Position numbers and translations under genes: made by a program. Of a stretch of DNA of 64,000 nt, positions 26,302 through 51,176 are shown piece by piece (within the stretch, counting starts at the first letter, position 1; every line of letters begins with the position of its first letter). The stretch is from Microbulbifer salipaludis (GTDB lineage: Bacteria > Pseudomonadota > Gammaproteobacteria > Pseudomonadales > Cellvibrionaceae). Below the pieces are notes generated by a model. The model was not told the DNA's origin, searched no databases, and worked only from the letters and a program-made list of their open reading frames with translations. The stretch lies in the NCBI RefSeq assembly GCF_017303155.1, contig NZ_JAEKJR010000001.1:1-64000 (forward strand), given 5' to 3'.

Positions 26302-26401
26302 GCACCGGGTATCCATTTTCAAAACCGCTGTAAACCCATCCATGGGCGCTGCGGCGGCGACGTCCCTGTCGCCGACGCTTTTGAAAATGGATCCCCGGCA
26401 C
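26302..26401 (-). repeat. Three-stem intergenic repeat, copy A
   Basis: Outer arms 26302-26324 and 26379-26401 pair with three mismatches. Read on the minus strand the interior contains a first hairpin with GGCGAC/GTCGCC arms around AGGGAC, and a second small hairpin CCCA-TGGA-TGGG followed by the conserved TTTACAGCGG. It lies between accC and prmA, back to back with copy B in the opposite orientation. Confidence 0.85.
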
Positions 26402-26481
26402 TTCCCCTTCAGCAGTTCCCTCCTTACCCTGTTAGCGTCCAGCTTCACTTGTAGAATGCACCGAATTTCGAATTGAAGTCG

Positions 26482-26586
26482 CCCCTGCCGGTAAGACTTT
26501 GCGGGGCCGTCTGCGGCCCGGATGGCCGCAGCCGAGCCCCCAGGGATGGGTTTACGGCGTGTCCCGCAAAGTCTTACCGGCAGGGG
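26482..26586 (+). repeat. Three-stem intergenic repeat, copy B
   Basis: A perfect 24-bp outer stem (26482-26505 with 26563-26586) encloses a hairpin with CTGCGGCC/GGCCGCAG arms, then GAGC, the small hairpin CCCA-GGGA-TGGG and the conserved strand TTTACGGCGTG. It lies directly upstream of prmA, in inverted orientation to copy A. The outer stem is unrelated in sequence to those of other copies. Confidence 0.92.
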
Positions 26587-26640
26587 TGACGCCACGAACT
26601 TTCCGAGTACCCCAAAGACCACAAAATCCGGACGAACCTA

Positions 26641-27531
26641 ATGCCCTGGCTCCAACTAAGAGTGAACACCAACCGCGAACAGGCCGAGAAGATCGAGAAC
26701 GCCCTGCTGTTCGCCGGCGCCGTCTCCGTCACCCTGCAAGACAACGCCGACCAGCCCATCCTCGAACCGGGCCTCGGCGAAACACCCCTGTGGGACGAAA
26801 CCCTCGTCACCGGCCTGTTCGATGCGGAAATCGACACCAGTGTCACCGAAGCCAAAGCCGCCTCCTTCCTTTGCGAACTGCTCCCCAATGCCCGCTGGGA
26901 ACAGCTCGAAGACAAAGACTGGGAGCGGGAGTGGATGAGCCACTACAAGCCCATCCAGTGCGCCGACAACCTCTGGATCTGCCCCAGCTGGTGCGAGCCG
27001 CCCGCCCCGGAAGCCGTCAATCTCATGCTCGACCCCGGCCTCGCCTTCGGCACCGGCACCCACCCCACCACCTTTCTGTGCCTGCAATGGCTCGCCGGTG
27101 AACAAGTACAGGGTAAAACCGCCATCGACTTCGGCTGCGGCTCCGGCATCCTCGGTATTGCCGCCCTGCTGCTTGGCGCCGAGTCCGCCATGGGCACCGA
27201 CATCGACCCCCAGGCGCTACTCGCCAGCCGTGACAACGCCGTGCGCAACGGCATCGATCCCGAGCGCTTCCCGGTCTACCTGCCGGAAAAAGCCCCCAGG
27301 CCGGAGGAGTCCAGCGCCGACATCATGCTCGCCAATATCCTCGCCGGCCCGCTGGTGGAACTGGCACCGCAGCTGGTTGAACGCACCAAGGTGGGCGGTC
27401 GCATCTGTCTTTCCGGCATTCTCAATAGTCAGGCCGAGAGGGTGAAAACGGCTTACAGCCAGTGGATCGACTTTGATGAGAATGGCGAAAAGGAAGAATG
27501 GGTCAGATTGAGCGGAACACGGGTTCGGTAA
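26641..27531 (+). CDS. prmA: Ribosomal protein L11 methyltransferase
   Basis: S-adenosylmethionine-dependent trimethylation of ribosomal protein L11. The 296-residue protein has the characteristic N-terminal ferredoxin-like domain (MPWLQLRVNTNREQAEKIEN, about 1-90) and the linker with EREWMSHYKPI. The Rossmann methyltransferase has GLAFGTGTHPTT and DFGCGSGILGIAALLLGA (SAM loop), and the NILAGPL motif follows. Codon usage is strongly C-ending. It is flanked by three-stem repeats on both sides. Confidence 0.97.
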   Translation: MPWLQLRVNTNREQAEKIENALLFAGAVSVTLQDNADQPILEPGLGETPLWDETLVTGLFDAEIDTSVTEAKAASFLCELLPNARWEQLEDKDWEREWMSHYKPIQCADNLWICPSWCEPPAPEAVNLMLDPGLAFGTGTHPTTFLCLQWLAGEQVQGKTAIDFGCGSGILGIAALLLGAESAMGTDIDPQALLASRDNAVRNGIDPERFPVYLPEKAPRPEESSADIMLANILAGPLVELAPQLVERTKVGGRICLSGILNSQAERVKTAYSQWIDFDENGEKEEWVRLSGTRVR

Positions 27532-27555
27532 TTGTCTGCTGCCCAAAGCGCAGGG

Positions 27556-27662
27556 ACTGCTAGCGATACTCCCTCGCCGGACCGTCTGCGGCCAGGACGG
27601 CCGCAGCCGAGCCCCCAGGGATGGGTTTACGGCGTGTCCGGCGAGGGAGTATCGCTAGCAGT
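27556..27662 (+). repeat. Three-stem intergenic repeat, copy C
   Basis: A perfect 25-bp outer stem (27556-27580 with 27638-27662). The inner hairpin has the same CTGCGGCC/GGCCGCAG arms as copy B with loop AGGAC, and the rest of the core (GAGC, CCCA-GGGA-TGGG, TTTACGGCGTGTCC) is identical to copy B. The outer stem is completely different. It lies between prmA and the zinc-ribbon gene. Confidence 0.92.
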
Positions 27663-27781
27663 ACCGCCACAAAAGTAACTACGAAGCACCCCCGCCGGCT
27701 ACGAAGCTCCAAGCCACAGCACTACGCGCCAGCCCTGCAGACTGATAAACTTCCCCGCCAAACCAATAATCGTCGAATTCC

Positions 27782-29014
27782 ATGTCGCAACTGGTCACCC
27801 GCTGCCCCCACTGCAGCACCTCGTTTCACGTCAGCGAACAACAACTGCGCGCCGCCCGCGGTGCCGTGCGTTGTGGCTCCTGCCTGCAGGTCTTCCGCGC
27901 CGATGAAAACATCGTTTTCAACGAAGACGATCCGGCCCCAGCCGAAACCAAGAAAGCCATCGACGACCTGCTCGAAGATGATGACTTCCTGATCCACGAC
28001 GACATCGAGCTGGAAGGTGACGACAGCGACGACGCAGACTCGCTGCCAAAGAAAACAACCCCCAAAGCCGACCCGGCGCAGAACAACAGCGGCGAAAAGC
28101 CCGAGCCCTCACGCCAGAGCCCCCTGATCGACGACGCCTTCGGCGAACACCAGTGGCAAAACCTCGATCAGGAAGAAGACAGCCAGCAGAGCCTCGACCT
28201 CAGCAGCAGCCTCGAAGATGAAATCAATGATCTGAGCCGCGCCAGCGACGACCCCTGGGCCGAAGAAATAGCCCGCGAAGAATCCAGCGGCATCATACCC
28301 GCACACCGCGCGCACGAAGACTTCGAGCTTCCGGCAGCGGACGACGAGCCAAGGTTCAGCGACGACCTGCCCTCCCCGCCACGGGCTGACAAGGGCGACA
28401 TCAAGCCCTCCGCCGTGGCAGATGACCACATCGACTCACGCCAGCGGGACGACGCCCCACTGCTGCCCCGCGACCAGCTGATCTCCGCCATCGGCCCCGC
28501 GCCCATCGAGGTCAACTGGCAGCCCAAGCGCCACAACCGGGTCCCCGGGTGGCTGTGGACACTGGGCGTTCTGCTGCTGATGCTGGCGCTAGCGGCGCAA
28601 ACCGCCTATTTTCGTTTCGACACACTCAGCAAGCGCGAACCCTGGCGCGCCATCTATGCCCAGGCCTGCCCGCTACTTGGCTGCAAGCTGCCAGCCCAGG
28701 TGGACATTAACGCCATGCACACCTCCAATCTGGTGGTGCGCAGCCACCCGCAAATTGCCGGCGCACTGGCGGTGGAAGCGGTACTCCTGAACCGCGCCCC
28801 CTTCGACCAGCCCTTCCCGGCCCTGCAGCTGCGGTTTACCGACCTCAAGAATAACCCCGTTGCCAGTCGTCGCTTCACCCCGCAGGACTACCTCAAGGGC
28901 GAGATGTCCGGACGCCGGTTGATGCCCGCGGGAAACCCGGTGCACATTGCACTTGATATCGTCGACCCCGGCCCCGAAGCGGTGAACTACGAGCTGCGTA
29001 TTGCCCCGCAGTAA
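27782..29014 (+). CDS. MJ0042 zinc-ribbon / DUF3426 membrane protein
   Basis: Protein of 410 residues and unknown function. An N-terminal zinc ribbon (C8-P-H-C and C32-G-S-C around FHVSEQQLRAARGAVR) is followed by about 200 residues of acidic, low-complexity sequence rich in Asp, Glu and Ser. One transmembrane helix lies near residues 257-277 (LWTLGVLLLMLALAA), followed by a C-terminal DUF3426 domain of about 130 residues ending in VNYELRIAPQ. The family regularly sits next to prmA and dusB-fis in pseudomonads. The zinc ribbon is predicted to be cytoplasmic and the DUF3426 domain periplasmic. Confidence 0.88.
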   Translation: MSQLVTRCPHCSTSFHVSEQQLRAARGAVRCGSCLQVFRADENIVFNEDDPAPAETKKAIDDLLEDDDFLIHDDIELEGDDSDDADSLPKKTTPKADPAQNNSGEKPEPSRQSPLIDDAFGEHQWQNLDQEEDSQQSLDLSSSLEDEINDLSRASDDPWAEEIAREESSGIIPAHRAHEDFELPAADDEPRFSDDLPSPPRADKGDIKPSAVADDHIDSRQRDDAPLLPRDQLISAIGPAPIEVNWQPKRHNRVPGWLWTLGVLLLMLALAAQTAYFRFDTLSKREPWRAIYAQACPLLGCKLPAQVDINAMHTSNLVVRSHPQIAGALAVEAVLLNRAPFDQPFPALQLRFTDLKNNPVASRRFTPQDYLKGEMSGRRLMPAGNPVHIALDIVDPGPEAVNYELRIAPQ

Positions 29015-29198
29015 CCCAGGGCACGCCGGCCGACTAGCGGACGAAGGCGCGTATTACCACCGGATACTGCACAAACTTCGCCCTAACCGGCCAGCCTTCG
29101 AACAATTTGCGCGCTTTTTCGCTTTTCCAGCGGCCGAGCAGCCGCTATTATAGGCGGCTCTTTGACACCGATTGAGACCAGACCTGCGGGAGGCCGAG

Positions 29199-30209
29199 TT
29201 GCCCACGGATTTACCAAGCAGCTTCGCCATCGGCCCCTATAGCATTGGTGCACCAGTCATTCTGGCGCCCATGGCCGGCGTTACCGATCGCCCCTTTCGC
29301 AAACTGTGCCGAGCACTCGGCGCCGGTCTCGTGGTTTCCGAGATGGTCACCTCCGACACCAGCCTGTGGAACAGCCGCAAATCTCGTATGCGCCTGGATC
29401 ACGCCGGTGAGGCAGGCCCCATTTCGGTACAGATTGCCGGTGGCGACCCGCAGATGATGGCCGACGCCGCGCGCGCAAATGTTGAGCGCGGTGCCCAGAT
29501 CATCGACATCAATATGGGTTGCCCGGCAAAAAAAGTGTGTAAGAAGGCAGCGGGCTCCGCCCTGCTGCGCGACGAAAAACTGGTCGCCGACATTCTGGAA
29601 ACGGTGGTGCAATCCGTCTCAGTACCAGTGACGCTGAAAATTCGCACTGGCTGGTGCCCGGATACCCGCAATGGCGTGACGGTGGCCAAAATGGCCGAGG
29701 ATCTCGGAATTTCTGCCCTGGCAGTCCACGGTCGCACCCGCGCCTGTGGCTACCACGGTCAGGCCGAATTCGATACCATTGCCGAGATTGTGTCCGCGGT
29801 AAAGATTCCGGTCTTTGCCAACGGCGACATTACCGGCGCGGAAAAGGCCCGCAAGGTGTTGGACTACACCGGCGCCAAAGCGGTCATGATTGGCCGTGCG
29901 GCTCAGGGACGTCCATGGATATTCCGGGAAATTGCCCATTACCTCGCTACGGGGGAACAGCTGCCGGAGCCCTCACTGGATGAAGTTAGGGATATTTTGA
30001 TCACTCACCTGGGTGAGTTACACCGTTTCTACGGTGAGGTTATGGGGGTACGTATTGCCCGCAAACATGTGGGTTGGTACGTAAAGACACTCGCCGACAG
30101 CGAGTCTTTTCGCAAATCCTTTAACCAATTGGATAGCGCAGAAGCACAACATGCCAGCGTTCGTGAGTGGTTTGAACGCCGAATAACTAGAGGGGCAAAA
30201 GCGGCATGA
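29199..30209 (+). CDS. dusB: tRNA-dihydrouridine synthase B
   Basis: FMN-dependent reduction of uridine to dihydrouridine in tRNA. The 336-residue TIM-barrel enzyme has [16 protein letters not shown], the catalytic-cysteine segment [37 protein letters not shown] and the FMN-phosphate loop [12 protein letters not shown] with [10 protein letters not shown]. The start was set at TTG 29199 because GGGAGG stands five bases before it; an upstream TTG at 29172 has no such site. It overlaps fis by four bases (ATGA), the classic dusB-fis operon. Confidence 0.95.
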
Positions 30210-30505
30210 CTAATGAAGCACTAATTCCGGATACCAGCGATGCGGTGTCCACTGGGGGCCAGACTCAACTACAACAACCGCAGGCCTTGCGCGACGCGGT
30301 TGAGCAGGCGATGGAAAACTACTTCCGTCACCTCGACGGTCAGATGGTGACCGATGTATACGATATGGTGCTCTCCGAAATTGAAGCACCGATGCTGGAA
30401 GTGGTAATGAAGCACACCCGCCACAACCAGACGCGCGCCGCACAGCTGCTGGGCCTCAACCGGGGTACCCTGCGCAAGAAGCTCAAGCGCTACGGTCTGC
30501 TGTAA
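30206..30505 (+). CDS. fis: DNA-binding protein Fis
   Basis: Nucleoid-associated homodimer that activates rRNA transcription and organises DNA. The 99-residue protein ends with the invariant helix-turn-helix [24 protein letters not shown]. The variable N-terminal 30 residues are Gln-rich. Its ATG overlaps the dusB stop, so translation is coupled. A strong intrinsic terminator follows at 30555. Confidence 0.97.
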
Positions 30506-30554
30506 GGCGACCAGCCGCTACCGGCAGACACAGGCTGGAGCGGTAAAAATTCGA

Positions 30555-30594
30555 CGAGGGGGGATGGGTTTTACCCATCCCCCCTCGCTATTTT
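30555..30594 (+). terminator. Intrinsic terminator after dusB-fis
   Basis: A perfect 14-bp GC-rich stem (30555-30568 with 30574-30587) with a five-base loop is followed within three bases by TTTT. It separates the fis transcript from purH. Confidence 0.88.
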
Positions 30595-30636
30595 CTGAAT
30601 TACCAGTTCTTTCCTAAATCAAACGGACGATGTGAT

Positions 30637-32211
30637 ATGACTGACAAGGTGGCCGTTCGCCGCGCGCTGATCAGCGTTTCCGACAAAACCGGCATTGTAG
30701 AATTTGCCCGCGAACTCTCCTCCATGGGCGTGGAGATTCTCTCCACCGGCGGCACCTACCGCCAGCTGGGCGAGGCCGGTATCCCGGTCGTGGAAGTCTC
30801 CGACTACACCGGCTTCCCGGAAATGATGGACGGGCGCGTCAAAACCCTGCACCCGAAAGTACACGGCGGCATCCTCGGCCGTCGCGGCAAGGACGACGCG
30901 GTCATGGATGAGCATGGCATCAAGCCCATCGACATGGTCGTGGTCAACCTCTACCCCTTCAAGGCCACCGTCGCCGACCCGAACTGCGACCTGCCCACCG
31001 CCATTGAAAACATCGACATCGGCGGCCCCACCATGGTCCGCTCCGCCGCCAAGAATCACAAAGACGTCGCCATCGTGGTCAATGCCCACAGCTACGACAC
31101 CGTGATCGAGGAAATGAAAGCCAACGACGGCCAGCTGGGTTACGCAACCCGCTACGACCTGATGGTGCAGGCGTTCGAGCATACCGCCCAGTACGACGGC
31201 ATGATCGCCAACCACTTCGGCGCCCGCAATACCGACAACGTTGCCCGCGAGTTCCCCAACACCTACAACGTCCAGTACGAAAAAGCCCAGGACATGCGCT
31301 ACGGCGAAAACCCGCACCAGAAAGCGGCGTTCTACGTGGAAGCCGACGCTGAGGAAGCCTCGGTCTCCACCGCCACCCAGCTGCAGGGCAAGGAACTCTC
31401 CTTCAATAACGTCGCCGACACCGACGCCGCGCTGGAAACCGTCAAACTGTTCGACGAACCCGCCTGCGTCATCGTCAAGCACGCCAACCCCTGCGGAGTG
31501 GCCGTCGCCGCCGACATCAAAACCGCCTACGAACTGGCCTTCGCCACCGATCCGGAATCTGCCTTCGGCGGCATCATCGCCTTCAACCGCGAACTGGACG
31601 CCGAAACCGCCCAGCTGATCGTCGACAAACAGTTCTCCGAAGTCATCATCGCCCCCAAAGTGAGCGCCGAAGCCGCCCAGGCCGTCTCCGCCAAGAAGAA
31701 CGTACGCCTGCTGGAATGCGGCGAATGGGACAGCACCCGCCCCGCCGCCTTCGACTACAAGCGCGTTACCGGTGGTTTGCTGGTTCAGGAAAAAGACAAC
31801 GGCATGGTTGCCAAGGAAGACCTCAAAGTGGTCACCAAGGTACAGCCTTCTGACGAGCAACTGGACGAACTGCTGTTCGCGTGGAAAGTCGCCAAAATGG
31901 TGAAATCCAACGCCATCATCTACGCCAAAGACGGCCGCACCATCGGCGTCGGCGCCGGCCAGATGAGCCGCGTCAACTCCGCTCGCATCGCCGCCATCAA
32001 AGCCGAACACGCCGGCCTCGAAGTGAAGGGCGCCGTCATGGCCTCCGACGCCTTCTTCCCCTTCCGCGACGGCATCGACAACGCCGCCAAGGTAGGCATC
32101 AGCGCCGTGATCCAGCCCGGTGGCTCCATGCGCGATGAAGAAGTCATCACCGCTGCGGACGAGCACGGTATGGCGATGGTGTTTACCGGCATGCGTCACT
32201 TCCGTCACTAA
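30637..32211 (+). CDS. purH: Bifunctional AICAR transformylase / IMP cyclohydrolase
   Basis: Last two steps of de novo purine synthesis to IMP. The 524-residue protein has the N-terminal cyclohydrolase domain ([45 protein letters not shown]). The C-terminal transformylase has [14 protein letters not shown] and [11 protein letters not shown], with the catalytic Lys-His pair in the latter. Codon usage is highly C-biased, suggesting strong expression. purD follows after a three-stem repeat. Confidence 0.98.
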
Positions 32212-32254
32212 GCAACTAAGACACCTTCCGGGTTGCACACAGCCCGGATGCGAA

Positions 32255-32366
32255 GGGCCAAGTGCCGAGGCCCGTTTGCGAGACCTTCACCGCCATGGAT
32301 GGCGGTGCAGAGCCCCCAGGGATGGGTTCACGGCGTGTCTCGCAAACGGGCATCGGCACTTGGCCC
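32255..32366 (+). repeat. Three-stem intergenic repeat, copy D
   Basis: Outer arms 32255-32283 and 32338-32366 pair over 29 bases with one mismatch. The inner hairpin is CACCGCCA-TGGA-TGGCGGTG, followed by GAGC, CCCA-GGGA-TGGG and TTCACGGCGTG. The inner end of the outer stem (CCGTTTGCGAGA) is shared with copy E, while the outer end is not. It lies between purH and purD. Confidence 0.92.
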
Positions 32367-32473
32367 GCCACGGAGCTGGCAAACCACCACCCTGCCATCA
32401 CTCCGTCACCTGTCCGACAAGTTAAGAATGCTAAACTAGCCCACCTAAAACACAGGCACGGGGAAACTCAAGA

Positions 32474-38045: not shown

Positions 38046-38055
38046 GGGCACCTCT

Positions 38056-40009: not shown

Positions 40010-41686
40010 TTAATGTTCGATGATCCACATATCTTTGGAGTAATAATTGTCCAGCGGATCAGCGGCATAGCCGCCCACGTGGGGTTTGACCATATGCTGG
40101 ATCACATACTGATAAATCGGTGCGATCGGCATATCCTCAGCCAGAATTTCTTCGGCCTGGGCGTAATACTCCGCACGCTTGGTCATATCCATTTCTTGTG
40201 AACTTTTCGCCAGCAGCGCGTCGTACATGGGATTGCTGTACTTGGCATAGTTACTCCCGCCATCGGTCAATAGCAACTTCAGCATGGTGGACGGCTCATT
40301 GTAATCACCAATCCAGCCGGCGCGGGCAATATCAAAATCAGTATTGGCGCGGGTGGAGAGGTAGGTTTTCCACTCCTGGTTTTCCAGAGTGACATCCACG
40401 TGCTGCAGATTCTGTTTCCACATCGCGCTAATCGCGACCGCCACTTTCTTGTGGTTGTCGTTGGTGTTGTAGAGGATGCTGAACTTGAGCGGGTTCTGCG
40501 CGTTGTAGCCCGCTTCGGCGAGCAACTCTCTGGCTTTGGCCGCGCGGTCTTGCTGGCTCTTCTGGCTCCAGGCCGTCGGCGGAGCATCGAAGCCCTTGAC
40601 CACTGCAGGTGTCAGGTGGAACGCAGGCTCCTCGCCACGCCCCATGACCTTGTATGCCATGATTTCGCGGTCGATGGCGTAGGCCAATGCCTTGCGCACA
40701 CGTGCGTCGTCAAACGGTGCCTTGGTATTATTGAACTCGTAGTAGTAGGTGCCGATATAGGGCGTGGTTTTGACCTCATCCGGACGCTCTTTTTTCAGGC
40801 GGCTGATGTGTTCAATAGGAATCTCATAGGCGAAATCTATCTCGCCGGCTTCATAGCGCTTCAACTCTGCATTGGGCGATGCGATCGGCAGGTTGCGCAC
40901 TTTCTGCAGTTTTACGTTGGCCGCATCCCAGTACAGATCATTTTTTACATACTCGATACGTTCGTTTACGACCCACTCGGTCAGTTTGAAGGCACCATTG
41001 CCGACGAAATTCCCAACCCGGGTCCACTGATCGCCATACTGCTCAACGGTGTCTTTGTGCACCGGTGAAGTGGAGACGTGGACCAGCATGGAGACAAAGT
41101 AAGGCACCGGCACTTCGAGGGAGACCTTGAGGGTATGCGTATCCACTGCCTCAACACCGAGGTTTTCCGGAGGCTGCTTGCCCTCGCTAATATCTTGCGC
41201 ATTCGCTACTTTGCCGGCGGCAAGGTACCAGGCGTATTTAGAGGCTGTAGCCGGGTCCACCAGTCGGCGCCAGGAGTAGACGAAATCCTGAGCGGTGACC
41301 GGGTCACCATTGCTCCACTTGGCGTCTTCACGCAAGTTGAAAATATACGTCTGGTGGTCGGTTGTCTCCCAGCTTTCCGCAACCGCAGGGCGAACCCCAC
41401 CGTCTGGTGCGGCGATAACCAGCGTCTCCAGCAGATCGCGCAGCAACGCGGACTCTACGGTCCCGGAGATTTTGTGCGGATCGAGAGATTCCGGCTCCGA
41501 GCTACCGCCCCGTACCAGAGTCTGATCTGCGGCAAGCCTGGATGAGTCCAGCTTCACTGCGGGGGTACTGGACTCCGCAGCGGGCTCTGAGGGTCCCCCA
41601 CACCCGGCAAGTGCGAACAGGGCTGTCAGTACAGGTCCCAAATACCAGGTACGGCGAAGGTTGGAAGATTGGTTGCGTCGCATCAT
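40010..41686 (-). CDS. oppA: Oligopeptide-binding lipoprotein OppA
   Basis: Solute-binding protein (SBP family 5) of 558 residues. A signal peptide ends in a lipobox (LAGCGG), so unlike the soluble E. coli protein it is probably lipid-anchored. The mature part has RGGSSEPESLDPHKISGT, WSNGDPVTAQDFVYSWRRL and the C-terminal APIYQYVIQHMVKPHV, all typical of OppA. It heads the opp operon with a gap of about 106 bases to oppB, leaving room for processing or a weak terminator that lowers permease expression. Confidence 0.95.
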   Translation of the reverse strand: MMRRNQSSNLRRTWYLGPVLTALFALAGCGGPSEPAAESSTPAVKLDSSRLAADQTLVRGGSSEPESLDPHKISGTVESALLRDLLETLVIAAPDGGVRPAVAESWETTDHQTYIFNLREDAKWSNGDPVTAQDFVYSWRRLVDPATASKYAWYLAAGKVANAQDISEGKQPPENLGVEAVDTHTLKVSLEVPVPYFVSMLVHVSTSPVHKDTVEQYGDQWTRVGNFVGNGAFKLTEWVVNERIEYVKNDLYWDAANVKLQKVRNLPIASPNAELKRYEAGEIDFAYEIPIEHISRLKKERPDEVKTTPYIGTYYYEFNNTKAPFDDARVRKALAYAIDREIMAYKVMGRGEEPAFHLTPAVVKGFDAPPTAWSQKSQQDRAAKARELLAEAGYNAQNPLKFSILYNTNDNHKKVAVAISAMWKQNLQHVDVTLENQEWKTYLSTRANTDFDIARAGWIGDYNEPSTMLKLLLTDGGSNYAKYSNPMYDALLAKSSQEMDMTKRAEYYAQAEEILAEDMPIAPIYQYVIQHMVKPHVGGYAADPLDNYYSKDMWIIEH

Positions 41687-42237
41687 TTATTACTCGTTCT
41701 TGTGGAACTTCATTTATTGTTTGCTTGGCCCTGTTGGCGATCAGCCCGCAGGTTAGAACTTATACAGCATTGGCCGCGAAAAGTTCTGTTCAGGCACCGG
41801 AGGCCACCTGGGAAGTGACAGTGATGCAAAAATACTGCCATACAACTGGGGGCCATCTCTGGGGTGCTCACACCGATTCTTCATCGAATAAATCGAATAA
41901 GCAGAACCGGTCGTTCATTCTCGCGCACCCTCATACTAGCAGCCTCCTTGAATATTTGGCTGTAGCGTAGAAAGGGCCCAGGCCAACCGGGCGTGTGCAG
42001 ATCGGCCAGCAGAGGCCCGCTACCAGTAAGGACAAAAACCCGCCATACACGGCAGGAAAGAAGCTTCCGCAAACACCAATGCCCCGTATCGCGCACGGGG
42101 CGCGGCATTTACCACAAACCGCCCAAGACTTGCTCTACCCTGAGCCTGGCTGGTCGCTCATAAAAAAACCGGGCACGAGGCCCGGTTTTTTTATGAGCGA
42201 GAGGCTGACGCCCCTGCGCGATGCTTCAGGTGATCAC
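41687..42237. other. Intergenic region upstream of oppA
   Basis: About 550 bases between the 5' end of oppA and the 3' end of the M3 peptidase gene, both minus strand. It should contain the opp promoter, for which I see no convincing -35/-10 pair. A short hairpin CCCCGT...ACGGGG lies near 42081-42099 and a strong terminator at 42154-42200. The frames crossing it have no recognisable product. Confidence 0.45.
42154..42200. terminator. Strong palindromic terminator after the M3 peptidase gene
   Basis: A perfect 21-bp stem (42154-42174 with 42180-42200) has a CCGGGC core and A7/T7 flanks around a five-base loop. It follows the minus-strand peptidase gene and could act in both directions. Confidence 0.85.
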
Positions 42238-44430
42238 TTACTGACCACCGGCAACCGGCTGCAGACCACGGCGGATCAGCAGCGCGTCGGTGGTCGGCTC
42301 CTTGCCGCGGAATTTGACGTACGACTCCATAGGTGCGCGGGAGTTGCCCACCTCCAGGATATTCTTGCGATACAGCGCGCCGTTTTCCCGGGTCAGGCCA
42401 CCGCGATCGCGCAGGTAGGCAAAGGCGTCTGCGGCGAGGATTTCACTCCACATGTAGGCGTAGTAGCTGGCCGAGTAGCCGCCGCCAATGGAGTGGGCAA
42501 AGTAGGTGGATTTGTAACGCGGCGGCACCGCGGCCAGGTCCACCCCATGCTTCGCCAGCGCCTTGGCTTCAAATTGCTCAACCTCCTGCGGTTCCGCATC
42601 CGCCGGCAGGGAGTGCCATTCCATATCCAGCAGTGCCGCAGACATATATTCCAGGGTATCGAAGCCCATATTGAAATTTTTTGCCTTCAGCACTTTTGCC
42701 AGTAGCGCTTCGGGAATAGCCTCACCGGTCTTGTAGTGGTAGGCGTAATTCGCCAGCACTTCCGGATGACTCGCCCAGTCTTCCTCGAAGGTGGACGGGA
42801 ACTCGACAAAGTCGCGCGAGACGGCGGTGCCCGCAAGGCTCGGGTAGTGAACCTGCGAAAGCATGCCGTGCAGGCCGTGCCCAAGCTCGTGGAACATGGT
42901 GGTGACATGGTCGAAGCTCACCAGCGTCGGCTCGCCTTCCGGGCCTTTGGGAATGTTCATCACATTCACCACCACCGGCTTTTGCTCCAGCAGGTGCGAC
43001 TGCCCGACAAAAGAGTTCATCCAGGCACCACCGCGCTTGCCCTCGCGCGCGAAATAATCGGCATAGAAGATCGCGAGGCTCTCGCCATCGTGATCAAACA
43101 GCTCGAAGGCCTGAACGTCCGGGTGGTATACCGGCAGGTCCGGGCGGGGCTTGAAGGTGATACCGTACAGGCGGTTCATGGTGTAGAACAGACCATCTTT
43201 CAGCACCCGGTTGAACTCGAAGTATTCGCGTACCTCGCTTTCGTTCAGGTCGTATTTTTCCTGACGGACTTTCTCCGCGTAGTAGGCCCAGTCCCAGGGT
43301 TGCACCGCAAAGTCGCCACCCTCGCGCTCAATCATGGCCTGGATATCGGCCTGCTCGGCCTGGGTGTTTTTCACCACCGCCGGCACCATGGAGCTGAGCA
43401 TGTTGAGGACGTTTTCCGGTTTCTCCGCCATGGTGCCGGTCAACCGGTACTCTGCCCAGTTGCCGTAACCCAGCAGATCGGCTTTTTCCGCGCGGATCTG
43501 AACCAGGCGCTTGACCAGCGGCCGGTTATCCAGCTCGCCCGAGGTTCCGCGATAGGCGGAGGCTTCCCAGATGCGCTGACGCAGCGCGCGGTTATTCAAA
43601 GAGGCCAGTATCGGCTGGCGGGTGGTGTTGGTGATACTGATCAGGTACTTGCCTGCATGACCGGCGCTGTTGGCGGCCTCTGCGGCAGCCTTGACCTGGC
43701 TTTCCGACAGGCCATCCAGCTCACGCTCGTCATCGACGATCACCGCAATATCCTTACTCAGCTTCAGCAGATTCTGGCTGAACTGGGTGGCGAGCTTGGA
43801 GTGCTCTTCATTCAATGCCCGCAGGGTGACTTTCTGCTCCGCAGACAGCTTGGCACCGGCTTTTACGAACTTGTCGTAATACTCTTCCAGCAGACGTGCG
43901 GACTCCGCATCCAGTTCTTGCGCAACCCGCTGCTTATACAGCGCCTCCACGCGGGCAAACAGATCGGCATTCAGGTAGATGCTGTCGGAGTGCGCCGCCA
44001 GTTTCGGCGCCAGCTGGCTTTGCAGCGCCCGGCGGGCTTCGTTGCTATCACTACCAACCAGGTTGTAGAAGACGCTGGAAACCCGGGTCAGCAGAGCACC
44101 TGCCTGCTCCATCGCCACAACGGTGTTGTTGAAGCTGGCCGGCTCAGGGTTGCTGGCAATCGTCTGGATTTCCTGCAGATGCTTGCGCATACCCTGCTCG
44201 AACGCCGGCGCAAAGTGGCTGTCCTTGATCTTCCCGAAGTCCGGCGCCTGATACTGGAGGAGACTCGGCTGCAACAGCGGGTTGTCCTGCCCTGCAGCGG
44301 TGTTCGAATCCGTCGCGGCCTGGGTATTTTCAACCGCGGCAGACGTTACAGACGGGTTCGCGTCGGGCTTGGGTGCCTCGGAACAGGCAGCTACAGCCAA
44401 AATGGCAACCGCGAGCAGGGATTTACGCAT
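42238..44430 (-). CDS. Lipoprotein M3-family oligopeptidase (Dcp-like)
   Basis: Zinc metallopeptidase of 730 residues, related to peptidyl-dipeptidase Dcp and oligopeptidase A. It has the M3 catalytic motif FHELGHGLHG (HExxH), the downstream glutamate region and the GGYSASYYAYMWSEIL segment that lines the active site. Unlike cytoplasmic family members it begins with a lipoprotein signal peptide (LLAVAILAVAACSE), so it should act in the periplasm on imported or turnover peptides. The start at 44430 has GGAGA upstream; the frame opens at 44520. It is transcribed in the same direction as, and upstream of, the opp operon, suggesting joint use in peptide nutrition. Confidence 0.92.
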   Translation of the reverse strand: MRKSLLAVAILAVAACSEAPKPDANPSVTSAAVENTQAATDSNTAAGQDNPLLQPSLLQYQAPDFGKIKDSHFAPAFEQGMRKHLQEIQTIASNPEPASFNNTVVAMEQAGALLTRVSSVFYNLVGSDSNEARRALQSQLAPKLAAHSDSIYLNADLFARVEALYKQRVAQELDAESARLLEEYYDKFVKAGAKLSAEQKVTLRALNEEHSKLATQFSQNLLKLSKDIAVIVDDERELDGLSESQVKAAAEAANSAGHAGKYLISITNTTRQPILASLNNRALRQRIWEASAYRGTSGELDNRPLVKRLVQIRAEKADLLGYGNWAEYRLTGTMAEKPENVLNMLSSMVPAVVKNTQAEQADIQAMIEREGGDFAVQPWDWAYYAEKVRQEKYDLNESEVREYFEFNRVLKDGLFYTMNRLYGITFKPRPDLPVYHPDVQAFELFDHDGESLAIFYADYFAREGKRGGAWMNSFVGQSHLLEQKPVVVNVMNIPKGPEGEPTLVSFDHVTTMFHELGHGLHGMLSQVHYPSLAGTAVSRDFVEFPSTFEEDWASHPEVLANYAYHYKTGEAIPEALLAKVLKAKNFNMGFDTLEYMSAALLDMEWHSLPADAEPQEVEQFEAKALAKHGVDLAAVPPRYKSTYFAHSIGGGYSASYYAYMWSEILAADAFAYLRDRGGLTRENGALYRKNILEVGNSRAPMESYVKFRGKEPTTDALLIRRGLQPVAGGQ

Positions 44431-44698: not shown

Positions 44699-44728
44699 CA
44701 CTTCCGTTATTGCCTTCCGATAACTGGC

Positions 44729-45523: not shown

Positions 45524-45527
45524 GACT

Positions 45528-46562
45528 TCACTCTTTGAATGCGCTGGTAAAGGCGGCCAGCTCGTTGATTTTCTCTCCGGCGAGGCCGCTGTAGATGGCG
45601 TCCTGCGCCATGCTCACCCCTTCCGCCCGGCTTGCGGCCACGCCACTGACGTAGATGGCCATGCCGGCATTGAGCGCAATGATATCAGCTGCCTTGTCGC
45701 CCGCGGGGGTTTCCCGTTTACCGAGGGCATCGCGAATCAGTGCCAGCGAATCTTCAGAACCCGAAACGCACAACCCGTCCAGATTCTGGCGCTCGATACC
45801 AAAATCTTCCGGAGTAATCGTGACTTTTTTCAGCTCACCATTCTTCAATTCCCAACCGCGGGTGTCCGCCGCCAGGCTGACCTCATCCAGGCCGTCGTCA
45901 CTGTGCAACACCAGCACATGTTCCGCGCCCAGGGTCTGCAGCACCTCCGCCAGCATCCGGCAATACTGGTAATCAAATACCCCGATGACCTGCCGCTTCA
46001 CCCCCGCCGGATTAGTGAGTGGCCCCAGCAGATTAAAAATGGTGCGCAGGCCCAGTGCCTTGCGCGGGCCGATAGCGTGGCGCATGGCGCTGTGATAGCT
46101 GGGTGCAAACATGAAGCCCACCCCCACGCCGTCGATGCAGCGGGCGACCTGTTCCGGGGTGAGCGGCAGATAGATACCGGCTTTTTCCAACAGATCGGCG
46201 GAGCCGGAGGACGACGAGACCGAACGGTTTCCATGCTTCGCCACCCGCGCGCCGGCGGCAGCGGCGACAAAACTGGAGGCGCTGGACACATTAAACAGGT
46301 TGGCACCATCACCGCCGGTACCCACAATGTCCACGGCATTGGTGTGGTCGATTTCGACCTTGGTGGCCAGCTCGCGCATGACTTCCACCGCACCGGTAAT
46401 TTCTTCGACCGATTCCCCGGCCATGCGCAGGGCCACCAAGAAACCGCCGATCTGTGCGTCTTCCACTTCCCCGCGCATAATCTGGCCCATGGCCGCGCGC
46501 ATCTCTTCACGGGTGAGATGTTCACCCTCCACCAGTTTGGCGATGGCCTGCTGGATATTCAT
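45528..46562 (-). CDS. trpD: Anthranilate phosphoribosyltransferase
   Basis: Transfers phosphoribose from PRPP to anthranilate. The 344-residue protein has the [25 protein letters not shown] loop (written in part: [13 protein letters not shown]), the [20 protein letters not shown] segment and the LGPLTNPAG motif. It is separated from trpG upstream by a 212-base gap holding a three-stem repeat, unusual within a trp operon. Confidence 0.97.
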
Positions 46563-46629
46563 TATTCTTCCCCTTCCCTAAGTATGTATTCCTGAGGTTC
46601 GCAAATTATCCGGCGGTCAAAGCTAAGGT

Positions 46630-46735
46630 GCTGATGCCGGTATCCGTTTGCGAGACCTTCTAAAACAGGGACGTTTTAGAAGAGCCCCCATGGATGGGTT
46701 CACGGCGTGTCTCGCAAACGGATACCGGCAGCAGC
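46630..46735 (+). repeat. Three-stem intergenic repeat, copy E
   Basis: Outer arms 46630-46655 and 46710-46735 pair over 26 bases with one mismatch. The inner hairpin is CTTCTAAAAC-AGGGAC-GTTTTAGAAG (46657-46682), AT-rich unlike the others but perfectly paired, followed by CCCA-TGGA-TGGG and TTCACGGCGTG. It lies between trpG and trpD and so is probably inside the trp transcript. Confidence 0.92.
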
Positions 46736-46774
46736 GCCGCCACCAAGCCATCTGCGGAGCGCCGTACCAATACC

Positions 46775-47353
46775 TCAAGACTCCAAAAAATTCCGCAACA
46801 TATCGTGCCCATGCTGAGTCAGAATCGACTCCGGGTGGAACTGCACCCCTTCGATGGGCAGTTCGCGATGGCGGATACCCATAATTTCGTCGATCTCACC
46901 GCCCTCGGTCTCGGTCCAGGCGGTGACTTCCAGGCAATCCGGCAGGCTGCCCTTCTCCACCACCAGCGAGTGATAGCGCGTTGCCTCGAACGGGTTGGAC
47001 AGGCCGTGAAATACGCCGACGTTGTTGTGGATGATCGGCGAGGTTTTGCCGTGCATCACCTGACCGGCACGCACCACGCGACCACCAAACACCTGACCGA
47101 TACTCTGGTGCCCCAGGCAGATACCGAGAATCGGCAACTTGCCCGCATAAGTACGAATCGTTTCCATCGAGATACCCGCCTCGTTCGGCGTGCACGGGCC
47201 CGGTGAGATGACGATTTTCTCCGGGTTCAGCTTCTCAATGTCCGCAACGGTAATTTCGTCGTTGCGCTTCACCACAACTTCCGCCCCCAGCTCCGCCAGA
47301 TACTGCACGATGTTGAAGGTGAAGGAGTCGTAGTTGTCGATCATCAGGATCAT
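46775..47353 (-). CDS. trpG: Anthranilate synthase glutamine amidotransferase subunit
   Basis: Supplies ammonia to TrpE. The 192-residue class I glutamine amidotransferase has [27 protein letters not shown], the nucleophile cysteine in [15 protein letters not shown] and the catalytic His/Glu in GVQFHPESI. Its ATG overlaps the stop of the upstream ion-channel gene by four bases (ATGA), so its translation is coupled to the channel rather than to trpE. Confidence 0.97.
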
Positions 47354-48207
47354 GATTCGGTTCCTTTCTCATCGCCCAGGTCGCCCAAACGCTTTTGCAA
47401 GCGGGCGAGGGAGTCCTGGGTTGCGCGGAGTTCGCGCAGAATTTCGGTCTGGCTCGGCGGCATGGACAGCTCATCCAGACGACGCAGCTTGGCTTCTTCG
47501 AGATTGTTCAACACCACACCGATAAACAGGTTGATCATCACAAACGCGCCCATCACCACGAAGCTGATGAAATAGATCCATGAATAAGGCATGGCCTCCA
47601 TCGCGGTATACATAATGTCGGTCCAGTCCTCAAAAGTGACAATGCGGAACAGACTCAACAGGGCGATGGGCAGCGTGCGCCAGTGGGTGGGGTCAATTTC
47701 GTGAAACAGGAAATAACCGGCCACCCCGTAAATGTAAAAAATAATCCCCATCAGCAGGCTGATGTGGAACATGCTCGGCAGGCTGCGCAGCAGGGTGTCG
47801 ACCAGCAAGCGCAACTCCGGGAACGCGGAGACCAGGCGCAACACCCGCAGCACCCGCACCAGGCGCGCCAGCGTAGCCATGGGCCCCGCCGCCGGAATCA
47901 GGCTCAGTACGATGATCGAGAAATCAAAGCAGTTCCAGCCATTGGCGAAGTAACGCCACGGACGGTTGCCATGGGCGGCAATCTTGATCGCCGCTTCCAC
48001 CATAAACGCCAACAGGATCAGCTGGTTGATGCCATACAGGGTGCTGCTGAAACGTTCCAGCACCCAGGTAGAGGTTTCCAGGCCGACAACGGCGGCATTC
48101 ACCATAATCAGGCCAATAATCACCTGATTAAAAATGGGCGCCTCCACAAGGCGACGACACTGCTCGGCAAAGCCGCGCTTTTGCTGTACCGAAATTTCGC
48201 TACTCAT
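47350..48207 (-). CDS. Voltage-gated ion channel with acidic calcium-like pore filter
   Basis: Six-helix cation channel subunit of 285 residues, of the bacterial NaChBac-like class. S1 to S3 lie at about 27-45, 60-78 and 92-107. The S4 voltage sensor has four arginines at three-residue spacing (R115, R118, R121, R124; [12 protein letters not shown]). S5 is about 145-168 and S6 about 209-234. The pore filter reads T191-F-E-D-W-T-D197, more acidic than the TLESW of sodium-selective relatives. A C-terminal coiled coil (about 250-280) fits tetramer assembly. The start at 48207 is preceded by GGAAG; the frame is open to 48237. It sits between trpE and trpG and overlaps trpG by four bases. Confidence 0.9.
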
Positions 48208-48242
48208 CGGGTTACTTCTTCCAATGGATCCTAACAATAAGG

Positions 48243-49724
48243 TTATTGCCCGGTGGCGATGGCCACGGCGCGGAACAGCGCCCGCGCTTTGTTCATGGTC
48301 TCATCCCACTCGGATTGCGGATCGGAATCCGCGACCAGGCCGGCGCCGGCCTGTACGTAAACTTTTTCATCCTTGATGACCGCGGTACGAATGGCGATAG
48401 CGGTGTCCATGTTGCCGTTCCACGCCAGATAGCCCACGGCTCCGCCGTAGACGCCGCGCTTTTCCGGCTCCAGTTCATCAATGATTTCCATGGCGCGAAT
48501 CTTGGGCGCACCGGAGAGGGTGCCCGCCGGATGCGCCGCGCGCAGGGCGTCGATCGCGTGCAGCTCCGGCTTAATTTTGCCGGTCACGTTGGAGACAATG
48601 TGCATCACGTGGGAATAACGCTCCACCACCATCTTTTCCGTCACTTTGACGCTACCGGTCTGCGCAACCCGGCCCACGTCGTTGCGGCCCAGGTCGATCA
48701 GCATCAGGTGCTCGGCGATCTCTTTCGGGTCCGCCAGCAGGTCCTGCTCCAGTGCCAGGTCCTGCTCTTCGGTGGCACCGCGGCGGCGGGTGCCGGCGAT
48801 CGGGCGCACGGTCATATCGCCGTCTTCCAGGTGCACCAGAATTTCCGGGCTGGAGCCCACCACCTGGTGGTCACCCAGGTCGAGGAAGTACATATATGGC
48901 GACGGATTCAGGCTGCGCAAGGCCCGATAAAGATTGAGCGGTGGCACCGTAAACGGTGCCGACAGGCGCTGGGACGGAACCACCTGCATGACATCGCCGG
49001 CCAGAATGTAATCCTTGACCTTGTGCACGCCGTGCTTGAAGGCTTCTTCGCCGAAGTGGGAGGTGAAGGTCGCTTCCGCGGTGTGGTCGCCGTCGATACC
49101 CAGGGGTTCGACGCTGGCCAGCGGCTGGGACAACTGACCAACCAGCTCGTCGAGGCGACGCTGGGCGCCTTCAAAGGCACTTTCCTGCTCTGGGTCCGCG
49201 TGCACGATAAACAGCACGGCGCCGGCCAGATTGTCGAACACCACCAGCTCGTCGCTGACCATCAGCAGGATATCCGGGTTGCCGAGGGTATCGGGCGGGC
49301 AGCTGTCGGCCAGTTTTGGCTCGATATAGCGCACCACGTCGTAGCCGAAGTAGCCGACGAGGCCGCCATTAAAGCGCGGCAGGCCGTCGATTTCCGGCAC
49401 CTTGTAGCGGCCGCGGAACTCTTCGACGAAGGCGAGCGGGTCTGCAACGGTTTTCTGCTCGACGATTTTGCCATCGCGCTCGACCACCACATCGTGACCG
49501 GTCACTTTAAGAACGGTGCGCGCGGGCAAGCCAATAATGGAGTAGCGCCCCCATTTTTCACCGCCCTGCACGGATTCCAGCAGGTAGCTGTAGCGACCGC
49601 CGTCGCGGGCAGCGAGCTTCATGTAGGTGGTCAGCGGGGTTTCTATGTCGGCCAGTACGCGACGGACTAGGGGTATGCGGTTGTAACCTGCAGACGTAAG
49701 CTGGGCGTATTCGCTGGGGGTCAT
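48243..49724 (-). CDS. trpE: Anthranilate synthase component I
   Basis: Makes anthranilate from chorismate using ammonia from TrpG. The 493-residue protein has an N-terminal regulatory part with the LLES element of tryptophan feedback binding ([18 protein letters not shown]), and the chorismate-enzyme core with [30 protein letters not shown] and [19 protein letters not shown]. The ATG is preceded by GGAG. No Trp-rich leader peptide or attenuator was found upstream. Confidence 0.97.
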
Positions 49725-50057
49725 GGCGACTCCGGTCTGTGCAATGCTTCGATTTTTACTGCGGGTCTTATTATGGATTGCACATCGTTGGTGGAATCCT
49801 ACCCGCGGGAAAGGCGCCCGTCGGACCCTGTGTATGGGCCTGCAGGCTTCAGCGGATCAGTGGCGCCATCGCCAGCTGTTGATGTGGGGGGCAGTGCAGT
49901 TCAATGTCACTTTCTCGCAGCGTTGGGGTCGCAGCGTCGAGTTGCTTCCCTGTATTCCGGCGAGCAAGTGTACAAATCTCTGGTAAAGGCGGCAAGCTCG
50001 GGATTTGGTGGCTCTTATTGGCCCTGTTTAAGTCCTTTGTAACCCCCGGTGGCGCCG

Positions 50058-50175
50058 GAGCACCGGGTAAGGGGTTTTGAAACCGAGCTAGGCGCCCCCC
50101 TGTGAATACATCCCTGTACGCTGCGTCAGCGACGTCCCTGTCGCTGACGCTTTCAAAACCCCTTACCCGGCACTC
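50058..50175 (-). repeat. Three-stem intergenic repeat, copy F
   Basis: Outer arms 50058-50082 and 50151-50175 pair over 25 bases with minor mismatch. Read on the minus strand the core has CGTCAGCGAC-AGGGAC-GTCGCTGACG, then TACA-GGGA-TGTA and TTCACA, nearly identical to copy H. About 14 extra bases are inserted before the outer arm, making this the longest copy. It is adjacent and inverted to copy G. Confidence 0.9.
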
Positions 50176-50217
50176 CAGCTTCGATTCGGGCTATAGAGCG
50201 CTGAACTTGGATGCGAA

Positions 50218-50328
50218 GGTCGGGTGCCGGGTGGCGCTTTTCGGGATCGTCGCAAACAGGATGTTTGCGCCGAAGCGCCCAGGGATGGGTTCACAGCGGT
50301 CCCGAAAAGCGCCACCCGGTGCCCGACC
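50218..50328 (+). repeat. Three-stem intergenic repeat, copy G
   Basis: Outer arms 50218-50246 and 50300-50328 pair over 29 bases with one G-T mismatch. The inner hairpin is CGCAAAC-AGGAT-GTTTGCG, followed by the small hairpin CCCA-GGGA-TGGG and TTCACAGCGG. It ends about 28 bases from the rpe stop codon. Confidence 0.9.
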
Positions 50329-50356
50329 GCCAGGGCCCGGTTACGGGGTCCCGTCC

Positions 50357-51025
50357 TTAGGCCAGCGCCAGTTCGGAACGCATCACTTTGATCACTTCCG
50401 CATAGTCATCCGCATTGAAAATGGCAGAGCCGGCAACAAAGCTGTCGGCACCAGCCTGGGCGATTTCGCGGATGTTGTCTTTGGTGACGCCGCCGTCGAT
50501 TTCCAGGCGGATGTCGAGGCCGGAGTCGTCGATGAGTTTGCGGGCTTCTTTGAGCTTGTCGAGGGTGGCGGGGATGAACTTCTGGCCGCCGAAGCCGGGG
50601 TTTACGGACATGAGGAGGATCATGTCGAGCTTGTCCATTACGTATTTGGCGGCGTCGAGGCTGCTGGCCGGGTTGAATACCAGACCGGCCTTGCACCCCA
50701 GCGACTGGATCAGTTGCAGGGAGCGATCCACGTGTTTACTGGCTTCCGGGTGGAAGGTGATGTAGGTGGCGCCGGCGTCGGCGAACATGCGGATCATGTC
50801 GTCGACGGGCTCAACCATGAGGTGAACGTCGATGGGGGCGGTCACACCGTGGTTGCGCAGGGCTTTGCAGACCATGGGGCCGATGGTGAGGTTGGGGACG
50901 TAGTGGTTGTCCATTACGTCGAAATGCACCCAGTCGGCGCCGGCGGCGAGGACGTTGTCGACTTCTTCCCCCAGACGGGCGAAGTTGGCGGAAAGGATGG
51001 AAGGTGCAATTTTGTAGTCTGGCAT
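50357..51025 (-). CDS. rpe: Ribulose-phosphate 3-epimerase
   Basis: Interconverts ribulose-5-phosphate and xylulose-5-phosphate in the pentose phosphate pathway. The 222-residue TIM-barrel protein begins [19 protein letters not shown] and has the metal/catalytic segments [31 protein letters not shown] and EIDGGV. The frame extends upstream to 51112, but that part runs into repeat H and is not coding. Three-stem repeats lie on both sides. Confidence 0.97.
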
Positions 51026-51072
51026 TTTCTCGTCTCGGTACCTGATGGTCCTATTAAAAAATCGTGGCGGCC

Positions 51073-51176
51073 GGGCACTGGGTGAAGCTTTTCGAAACCG
51101 CTGTGAATACATCCCTGTACGCTGCGTCAGCGACGTCCCTGTCGCTGACGCTTTCGAAAAGCTTCACCCAGCACCC
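51073..51176 (-). repeat. Three-stem intergenic repeat, copy H
   Basis: Outer arms 51073-51097 and 51152-51176 pair over 25 bases with two wobble-type mismatches. The core is almost the same as copy F: CGTCAGCGAC-AGGGAC-GTCGCTGACG, then TACA-GGGA-TGTA and TTCACAGCGG. In the small hairpin TACA/TGTA replaces CCCA/TGGG with pairing kept. It lies between murU and rpe. Confidence 0.9.

What the first reader, a model, noticed from the sequence alone, without database searches (positions are those of the whole stretch)
26302..51176. Family of eight three-stem intergenic repeats with compensating stem changes
Eight copies (A 26302, B 26482, C 27556, D 32255, E 46630, F 50058, G 50218, H 51073) share one plan. 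A long outer stem (23-29 bp) encloses hairpin P2, then hairpin P3, then a conserved unpaired strand TTYAC(R)GCG(G/T). Stem sequences differ between copies yet remain complementary: P2 is CTGCGGCC/GGCCGCAG in B and C, CTTCTAAAAC/GTTTTAGAAG in E, CGCAAAC/GTTTGCG in G; P3 is CCCA/TGGG in most and TACA/TGTA in F and H. Apical loops stay purine-rich with a GGA core. Selection therefore seems to act on a folded three-way junction plus loop sequence, as DNA cruciform or RNA. I do not recognise it as a named family. Similar palindromes may exist in related genomes.
Basis: partly seen in the sequence, partly recalled or inferred. Interest (0 to 1): 0.85.

Follow-up and report, generated by a model that had tools for sequence, protein, structure and literature searches.

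The report
Dispersed RNA-like three-stem intergenic repeat
The eight palindromes are copies of a repeat, present about a hundred times in this marine bacterium's genome, that folds into a three-way junction and shows in two loops a motif like the landing site of the RNA-binding regulator CsrA; it is kin to a little-studied catalogued RNA and to a Yersinia repeat.

Summary
Confirmed, and larger than reported. The eight copies are real (five on +, three on -). A covariance model built from them finds 104 strong copies in this Microbulbifer genome, 136 in Microbulbifer sp. HZ11, and matches in 96 of 244 genomes, 51 of 112 genera, of the order. All three stems covary: 95.2% of cells paired, 58.0% when shuffled. 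In the outer stem G.U wobbles outnumber A.C mismatches (155:10; 71:9 without two wobble columns), in copies sense and antisense to genes alike. So one strand of the element, single-stranded, seems to be what folds, rather than a cruciform. Both apical loops are mostly ANGGAN, usually 23-24 nt apart, the published high-affinity Csr/Rsm site. It is not nameless: kin of Rfam TwoAYGGAY, already proposed to bind CsrA; its core matches Yersinia YPAL/RU-2 at 44 of 53 columns. I read it as a REP-like dispersed repeat whose RNA docks a CsrA dimer. Binding, transcription and mobiliser are unproven; near-random orientation to genes counts against a simple UTR role. New: the abundance, a different clamp helix in every copy compared, the strand polarity, and joining TwoAYGGAY to YPAL.

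The parts
26289..26413 (-). copy A, antisense to the flanking genes; forms a head-to-head inverted pair with B
   Evidence: model match 121.9 bits; context
26472..26597 (+). copy B, 44 nt upstream of the ORF 26641-27531 (annotated here as prmA from recall and neighbourhood)
   Evidence: 124.7 bits; orthologous in HZ11 with a different P2
27547..27672 (+). copy C, 16 nt after the stop of the ORF 26641-27531
   Evidence: 123.1 bits; orthologous copy in HZ11
32249..32373 (+). copy D, 38 nt after the stop of the ORF 30637-32211 (purH by similarity)
   Evidence: 129.8 bits; identical outer stem in HZ11
32255..32284 (+). copy D: 5' arm of the outer clamp stem P1
   Evidence: inverted repeat I3, 97% complementary
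32289..32306 (+). copy D: hairpin P2, ACCGCC-ATGGAT-GGCGGT
   Evidence: fold, alignment
32315..32326 (+). copy D: hairpin P3, CCC-AGGGAT-GGG
   Evidence: fold, alignment
32327..32335 (+). copy D: conserved TTCACGGCG, bulge TTCAC then GGCG
   Evidence: alignment; variants counted
32337..32366 (+). copy D: 3' arm of the outer clamp stem P1, followed by the unpaired tail CGCCAC
   Evidence: inverted repeat I3
46621..46745 (+). copy E, antisense to both flanking ORFs
   Evidence: 125.4 bits; context
50047..50185 (-). copy F, with a 14-nt insertion after TTCACAG; head-to-head inverted pair with G
   Evidence: 114.9 bits; sequence
50212..50335 (+). copy G, antisense to both flanking ORFs
   Evidence: 128 bits
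51062..51186 (-). copy H, between ORFs 50357-51025 and 51227-51892, both on minus; sense
   Evidence: 128.4 bits; context

Best explanation
The copies belong to a dispersed intergenic repeat of about 125 nt whose element strand folds, single-stranded and most likely as RNA, into a clamped double hairpin. P1, about 29 bp, closes a three-way junction; P2 and P3 each show an A(N)GGAN loop, and the bulge TTYAC with GGCG follows P3. The fold, its strand polarity and the loop conservation are shown. Inferred: the two loops, 23-24 nt apart, dock the two faces of one CsrA/RsmA dimer. P1 has no sequence to keep, only pairing, so it drifts by compensated changes and differs in every copy. Transcripts that run through copies would bind CsrA locally at mRNA 3' ends and, summed over about 100 copies, buffer free CsrA. 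The element spreads or once spread like REP repeats (foot tags GAAG and CGCCA, inverted pairs with the GAAG ends facing each other); the enzyme is unknown. Kin: TwoAYGGAY RNA and YPAL.
For: Covariation with controls: 95.2% paired, against 58.0% shuffled and 38-47% slid. In 16 same-place pairs between the two genomes, P1 shows 103 compensated double changes against 39 single ones (22 G.U, 3 A.C, 14 other), while fourfold sites differ by 0.388. G.U 155 to A.C 10 in P1 of 103 copies, 55 to 10 in the order-wide set, the same in sense and antisense copies. Of 194 non-redundant elements 181 have at least two GGA hairpins; 327 of 340 hexaloops start with A; spacing 23-24 nt in 157 of 181; 191 of 194 opposite strands have no such hairpin. 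Published: ANGGAX hexaloop directly on a stem is the high-affinity Csr/Rsm site (PMC4005645, passages); dimers bridge sites 10 to 63 nt apart, optimum over 18 (PMC7652899, passages). RF01731 marks copies of this repeat: 4 of 4 own-genome matches, and 8 of 8 fetched loci carry a model R2 match. CsrA is encoded in this genome.
Against: Orientation to genes is close to random: 41 sense, 32 antisense, and loops are kept equally in both (62 of 69 and 46 of 51). A function tied to reading through the upstream gene should favour sense copies. No RNA data were seen. Conserved GAAG, CGCCA and TTYACRGCG are not explained by CsrA. CsrA is nearly universal here (28 of 29 genomes), so co-occurrence has no power; genomes with 5-19 CsrA paralogues are mostly poor in the element, which a simple sponge idea does not predict. 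13 of 194 elements have one GGA hairpin by my scan.
Confidence: 0.45

Rival explanations
1. A giant REP-like single-stranded DNA element. A HUH (Y1, RAYT-type) transposase recognises the hairpin of one strand during replication, using the GAAG foot as guide and the loops as contacts; the fold is kept because it is needed for mobility, not as RNA.
For: REP-like plan: unpaired tag at one foot, CCA-like tail at the other, and close pairs all inverted, mostly tag to tag: 16 -+ and 4 +- in the own genome, 17 and 3 in HZ11, none direct; PMC3733652 passages describe the same for REPs. Orientation to genes is nearly random. Upstream motif ACGAAGTA in 36 of 74 type-1 copies against 0.72 expected. A single-strand DNA hairpin would also give G.T over A.C.
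Against: Y1_Tnp has no match in G012 and G022, which hold 52 and 49 copies. 1 of 10 fetched Y1 loci has a copy nearby. No two copies compared share an outer arm, so there is no sign of recent copying. Outside Microbulbifer the GAAG/CGCCA feet are often missing while loops and TTYACRGCG persist.
Confidence: 0.27
2. An mRNA 3'-end element: the long hairpin protects or ends transcripts of the upstream gene, in either direction, as has been suggested for YPAL, ERIC and REP.
For: Copies sit a median of 38-41 nt after a stop codon and avoid divergent gaps: 2 of 77 copies against 84 of 416 background gaps. PMC2229807 (passages) reports such an effect suggested for YPAL.
Against: No terminator U-tract: TTTTT in 1 of 194. 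A plain hairpin would not need two conserved A(N)GGAN loops or the bulge TTYAC. Position after stops may only show where insertions are tolerated.
Confidence: 0.18
3. No selection on the fold: arm-to-arm template switching during replication (quasi-palindrome correction) keeps the arms complementary, or a double-stranded DNA protein binds the cruciform.
For: Long perfect arms with locus-specific sequence are what such correction would make; double changes come in runs.
Against: It predicts equal G.T and A.C, but 155:10 and 55:10 were seen, also apart from the two wobble columns (71:9). It does not explain covariation in the short P2 and P3, the invariant loops, or the nearly constant arm length.
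Confidence: 0.05

Closest known systems
TwoAYGGAY RNA (Rfam RF01731, clan CL00106)
   Same: Outer stem not conserved in sequence, two hairpins with A-N-GGA-N loops inside it. The Rfam model itself hits copies of this repeat. Gardner and Eldai proposed that it binds CsrA (PMC4333381, passages).
   Different: Own-genome copies score at most 42.1 bits, just under the cut-off of 43. The commonest loop is AGGGAT, not AYGGAY. Described from human gut, gamma-Proteobacteria and Clostridiales (PMC2864571 table); in the passages seen it was not described as a high-copy repeat.
YPAL / RU-2, Yersinia palindromic sequence
   Same: Published RU-2 folds on the same plan, and its core matches L153 at 44 of 53 columns (score 59; best of 30 shuffled RU-2 runs 29). 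High-copy, intergenic.
   Different: 168 bp with a longer outer stem. Target-site duplications of 3-26 bp are reported for it (via PMC2229807; the original paper is not held); none was defined here. Model R2 finds no copy in Yersinia nurmii.
Ysr224 (Rfam RF02770, Yersinia sRNA)
   Same: Its model aligns with the reverse complement of the core (24.4-37 bits, cut-off 70).
   Different: Modelled on the opposite strand and far below its cut-off here.
REP / BIME repeats
   Same: Unpaired tag and CCA-like tail, inverted pairs, intergenic, about 100 copies, uneven among species.
   Different: REPs are 20-40 bp single hairpins tagged GTAG or CGTC (PMC3733652 passages); this is 125 nt, three-stemmed, tagged GAAG, with no transposase linked.
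CsrB/RsmZ-type CsrA-binding sRNAs
   Same: GGA hairpins of the same loop form.
   Different: Those are single sRNA genes with several sites; this has two sites per copy in many copies, and transcription is unknown.

Membership tests
TwoAYGGAY RNA (RF01731) | score at or above the family's gathering cut-off (43 bits) | tested here: inconclusive
   own genome 4 matches, best 42.1, none over; 2 of 38 genomes over (47.6 and 43.5 bits), both at places where model R2 also matches; no match in the window at gathering.
TwoAYGGAY RNA (RF01731) | two hairpins with A-N-GGA-N terminal loops inside an outer stem | tested here: met
   181 of 194 elements have two or more; strict AYGGAY is met only by a part (80 ATGGAT, 11 ATGGAC, 3 ACGGAT hairpins of 390).
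YPAL / RU-2 | core sequence and three-stem fold of published RU-2 | tested here: met
   same fold, 44 of 53 core columns identical, best score 59 against at most 29 for shuffled RU-2.
YPAL / RU-2 | insertion with target-site duplications of 3-26 bp at or next to dyad symmetry | tested here: inconclusive
   Six filled/empty places read by eye: one copy lies inside a terminator hairpin that is whole in the other species and one just after a terminator, but flank complementarity over 129 clusters is not above chance (47 with 7 bp or more, 55.4 expected). No duplication defined.
REP repeats | 20-40 bp hairpin with unpaired GTAG or CGTC tag | tested here: not met
   125 nt, tag GAAG.
REP repeats | close pairs inverted, tag to tag | tested here: met
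   16 of 20 and 17 of 20 tag to tag, 40 of 40 inverted.
REP repeats | association with a Y1 (RAYT) transposase | tested here: not met
   G012 and G022: 52 and 49 copies, no Y1_Tnp match; 1 of 10 fetched Y1 loci has a copy nearby.
CsrA/RsmA-binding RNA | ANGGAN hexaloop directly on a stem, in pairs at bridging distance | tested here: met
   published form in PMC4005645 and PMC7652899.
CsrA/RsmA-binding RNA | transcribed on that strand and bound by CsrA | not testable with these tools
   No RNA or binding data at hand.
intrinsic terminator | hairpin followed by a U-tract | tested here: not met
   TTTTT near the tail in 1 of 194.

The most novel reading that the evidence does not exclude
A selfish or domesticated repeat that is itself a distributed regulator sink. 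More than a hundred dispersed copies per genome each carry one complete CsrA-dimer docking unit inside a private, sequence-free clamp helix, so that CsrA activity is set by the summed transcription of repeats across the genome. TwoAYGGAY, YPAL and this family would then be one ancient mobile RNA class spanning Pseudomonadales, Yersinia and beyond.
Probability: 0.2. Interest if true: 0.85.

Novelty: new variant of a known kind. Interest (0 to 1): 0.6.

Why it matters
It ties together three things catalogued apart: an orphan Rfam RNA with a proposed CsrA link, a Yersinia mobile repeat, and a Yersinia sRNA modelled on the other strand. It shows that this class is one of the common intergenic repeats of an order of bacteria. 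The strand polarity of covariation (G.U against A.C) is a simple general test of whether a genomic palindrome is selected as a single strand or as duplex DNA. If CsrA does bind, a dispersed repeat would be part of a global regulator's titration circuit, and this could be tested at once with purified protein.

Tried and rejected
ISAs1 transposase as mobiliser, suggested by two copies flanking one on plasmid pDCA: no match in the own genome, matches in 18 of 194 order genomes, and copies near 2 of 30 fetched ISAs1 loci. Y1/RAYT as sole mobiliser: see the rivals. Insertion into terminator hairpins as a general rule: negative. Origin of copies by gene conversion of the whole element: not supported, since no two arms compared are identical; yet only 5 of 16 same-place pairs between the two genomes are each other's best match by outer arm, so replacement at a place is not excluded. 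Faster-than-neutral change of P1: dropped, because fourfold sites already differ by 0.388. CsrA loss in element-rich genomes as a test against CsrA: dropped. The apparent truncation in G008 is a run of N (1499 N in L288), and neighbours of csrA are N-masked in other single-contig genomes, so missing matches in G018, G019 and G250 mean nothing. Phages: one unrelated weak match of 22 letters. Paper search by core sequence strings: 3 papers, none on bacterial repeats by title. Papers holding both TwoAYGGAY and YPAL: none among the 15 of 16 listed. Microbulbifer repeat search: nothing relevant by title in the 12 listed.

Limits: E-values of R1 and R2 are rough. R2 was built from 95 rows, of which 1 is an opposite-strand echo (L039) and some come from other genera. 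A6 includes 4 opposite-strand echoes among 51 rows. I dropped opposite-strand rows before my own counts (2 of 105 in A4, 1 of 79 in A7, 4 of 51 in A6). Alignments made by model search lean to the model's structure. Gene calls come from my own simple script, not from annotation; copies within one genome and between genomes are related by descent and were not tree-corrected. A stated species name rests on the closest named contigs, not on the record of the window.
Full report
OBSERVATION. The eight copies are present as described. Read on their own strand, they share: foot GAAG (6 of 8, AG in all 8), a clamp stem P1 of about 29 bp, hairpin P2, hairpin P3, TTYACRGCG, the second arm of P1, and foot CGCCA (8 of 8). 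Each folds better than 200 of 200 shuffles.

HOW MANY, WHERE. Model R1 from the eight gives 120 rows in the own genome: 104 strong copies, 15 opposite-strand echoes and 1 weak row (150 of 797 first-look candidates scored). Among 38 relatives 27 have matches (at most 93 scored per genome), very unevenly within the genus: 93 (the cap) in several, 1, 1, 2, 2, 2, 5, 11 and 0 in others. Microbulbifer sp. HZ11 has 142 rows, of which I used 136. Model R2, from 95 rows, finds 96 of 244 order genomes and 51 of 112 genera at E 1e-6 (at most 14 scored per genome). The genus follows from the nearest named contigs.

CONTEXT. Of 103 copies with simple gene calls, 73 lie between co-directional genes (41 sense, 32 antisense), 23 between convergent and 3 between divergent genes, 3 in weak predicted ORFs and 1 without flank. 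In fetched stretches of two genomes 67 of 77 are co-directional, 8 convergent and 2 divergent, against 278, 54 and 84 of 416 background gaps of 60 bp or more; the median distance after a stop codon is 38 and 41 nt. Close pairs are inverted in 40 of 40 cases: 33 with the GAAG ends facing, 7 the other way.

COVARIATION AND POLARITY. On an order-wide alignment (49 distinct rows) 95.2% of cells pair, against 58.0% in shuffles (0 of 500 as high) and 38-47% with slid partners. Changes on both sides occur in 29 of 31 P1 pairs, 6 of 6 P2 pairs and 3 of 4 P3 pairs. Between this genome and HZ11, 16 same-place pairs of copies give 464 P1 base pairs: 311 unchanged, 103 double Watson-Crick changes, 11 other double, 22 G.U single, 3 A.C single, 14 other single. 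Fourfold sites differ by 0.388, so independent change would give mostly singles. Non-standard P1 cells are 155 G.T/T.G, 10 A.C/C.A and about 72 others in 103 copies; without two columns that carry a common tandem wobble, 71 and 9. Sense copies: 31 and 3; antisense copies: 26 and 3. Order-wide set: 55 and 10. Because copies lie in both orientations to genes and on both strands, strand bias of mutation tied to transcription or replication should cancel. Inference: the element strand folds as a single strand. RNA is the simpler molecule; single-stranded DNA is not excluded.

EACH COPY HAS ITS OWN CLAMP. 59 of 59 own and 46 of 46 HZ11 copies compared have different P1 arms. Some arm positions are at nearly 2 bits of entropy while the feet and core are nearly fixed. 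P2 comes in recurring types and is swapped between same-place copies: site B is TCTGCGGCC-type here and TCTAAAAC-type in HZ11. Orientation is the same in 15 of 16 same-place pairs, but by P1 similarity only 5 of 16 are each other's best match.

LOOPS. GGA is in the P3 loop of 103 of 103 and in P2 of 101 of 103. In 194 non-redundant elements 166 have exactly two GGA hairpins, 15 three and 13 one; 340 are hexaloops, 327 of them starting with A; the GGA-to-GGA distance is 24 in 88 and 23 in 69 of 181; the opposite strand has none in 191 of 194. That is the form given as high-affinity for RsmE (PMC4005645, passages) at a distance where a CsrA dimer can bridge (PMC7652899, passages). CsrA is encoded here. 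Loops are kept as well in antisense as in sense copies, 46 of 51 and 62 of 69. This is the main fact against a function in the upstream gene's transcript.

KIN. Rfam at gathering: none in the window. At relaxed settings TwoAYGGAY hits a copy. Searched in genomes, RF01731 has four own-genome matches, all at copies found independently by R1, the best at 42.1 bits against a cut-off of 43. Two other genomes exceed the cut-off, and all eight fetched loci carry an R2 match at the same place. [quoted passage not shown] Published RU-2/YPAL (PMC2759123, table passage) folds alike and matches a Pseudomonadales copy at 44 of 53 core columns. Ysr224 matches the opposite strand below cut-off. I saw no paper joining them (open-licence library only).

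MOBILITY. No mobiliser was found. Y1 and ISAs1 do not track the copies. Six filled/empty places were read by eye: one copy in HZ11 lies within a terminator hairpin that is whole here, one just after a terminator, two 'empty' sides keep what look like element ends, one holds a degraded element, and one is unclear. Terminator targeting as a rule was tested and not supported. The REP-like traits (tagged foot, tail, inverted pairs) suggest, but do not show, a HUH-type process.

VERDICT. Shown: a high-copy, order-wide, three-stem family under selection for a one-strand fold with two A(N)GGAN loops, kin to TwoAYGGAY and YPAL. Inferred: CsrA docking as RNA. Open: transcription, mobiliser, and effect on neighbours.

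Noticed in passing
G003, G004, G006, G009, G010, G014: These Microbulbifer genomes have 12, 5, 9, 7, 19 and 6 CsrA matches but only 1, 1, 68, 2, 5 and 11 copies of the repeat, whereas the unmasked element-rich ones have 1 or 2 CsrA. Shared ancestry was not excluded.
   Followed up: partly
20 nt upstream of the GAAG foot, e.g. L268:14054-14344 spacer region: A motif ACGAAGTA stands at a fixed distance upstream in 36 of 74 type-1 copies (0.72 expected); in tag-to-tag pairs the spacer can carry it as an inverted repeat (TACTTCGTA...TACGAAGTA).
   Followed up: partly
window 50047-50185 and others: A recurring insertion GGGGGCGCCTAGCTC or like it follows TTCAC(AG) in 11 of 103 copies by the strings counted, as if a second small element targets the repeat.
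   Followed up: no
own genome, contig C2 about 1.10-1.86 Mb: No strong copy in about 760 kb, while other regions have up to 15 per 200 kb.
   Followed up: no
L177 (Ancylobacter novellus plasmid pDCA) 1075-1193 and 2463-2580: Two inverted copies with different outer stems flank an ISAs1 transposase gene on an alphaproteobacterial conjugative plasmid.
   Followed up: yes
window 42154-42200: Perfect 21-bp hairpin with A-tract and T-tract, a likely two-way terminator between ORFs 40010-41557 and 42238-44430, both on minus.
   Followed up: no
L282, L284, L288: The stretch beside csrA reads as runs of N (827-1499 N), so gene absence there cannot be judged.
   Followed up: yes
L259:10747-10874 and L262:15474-15599: The one of 16 same-place pairs with opposite orientation in the two genomes.
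   Followed up: no
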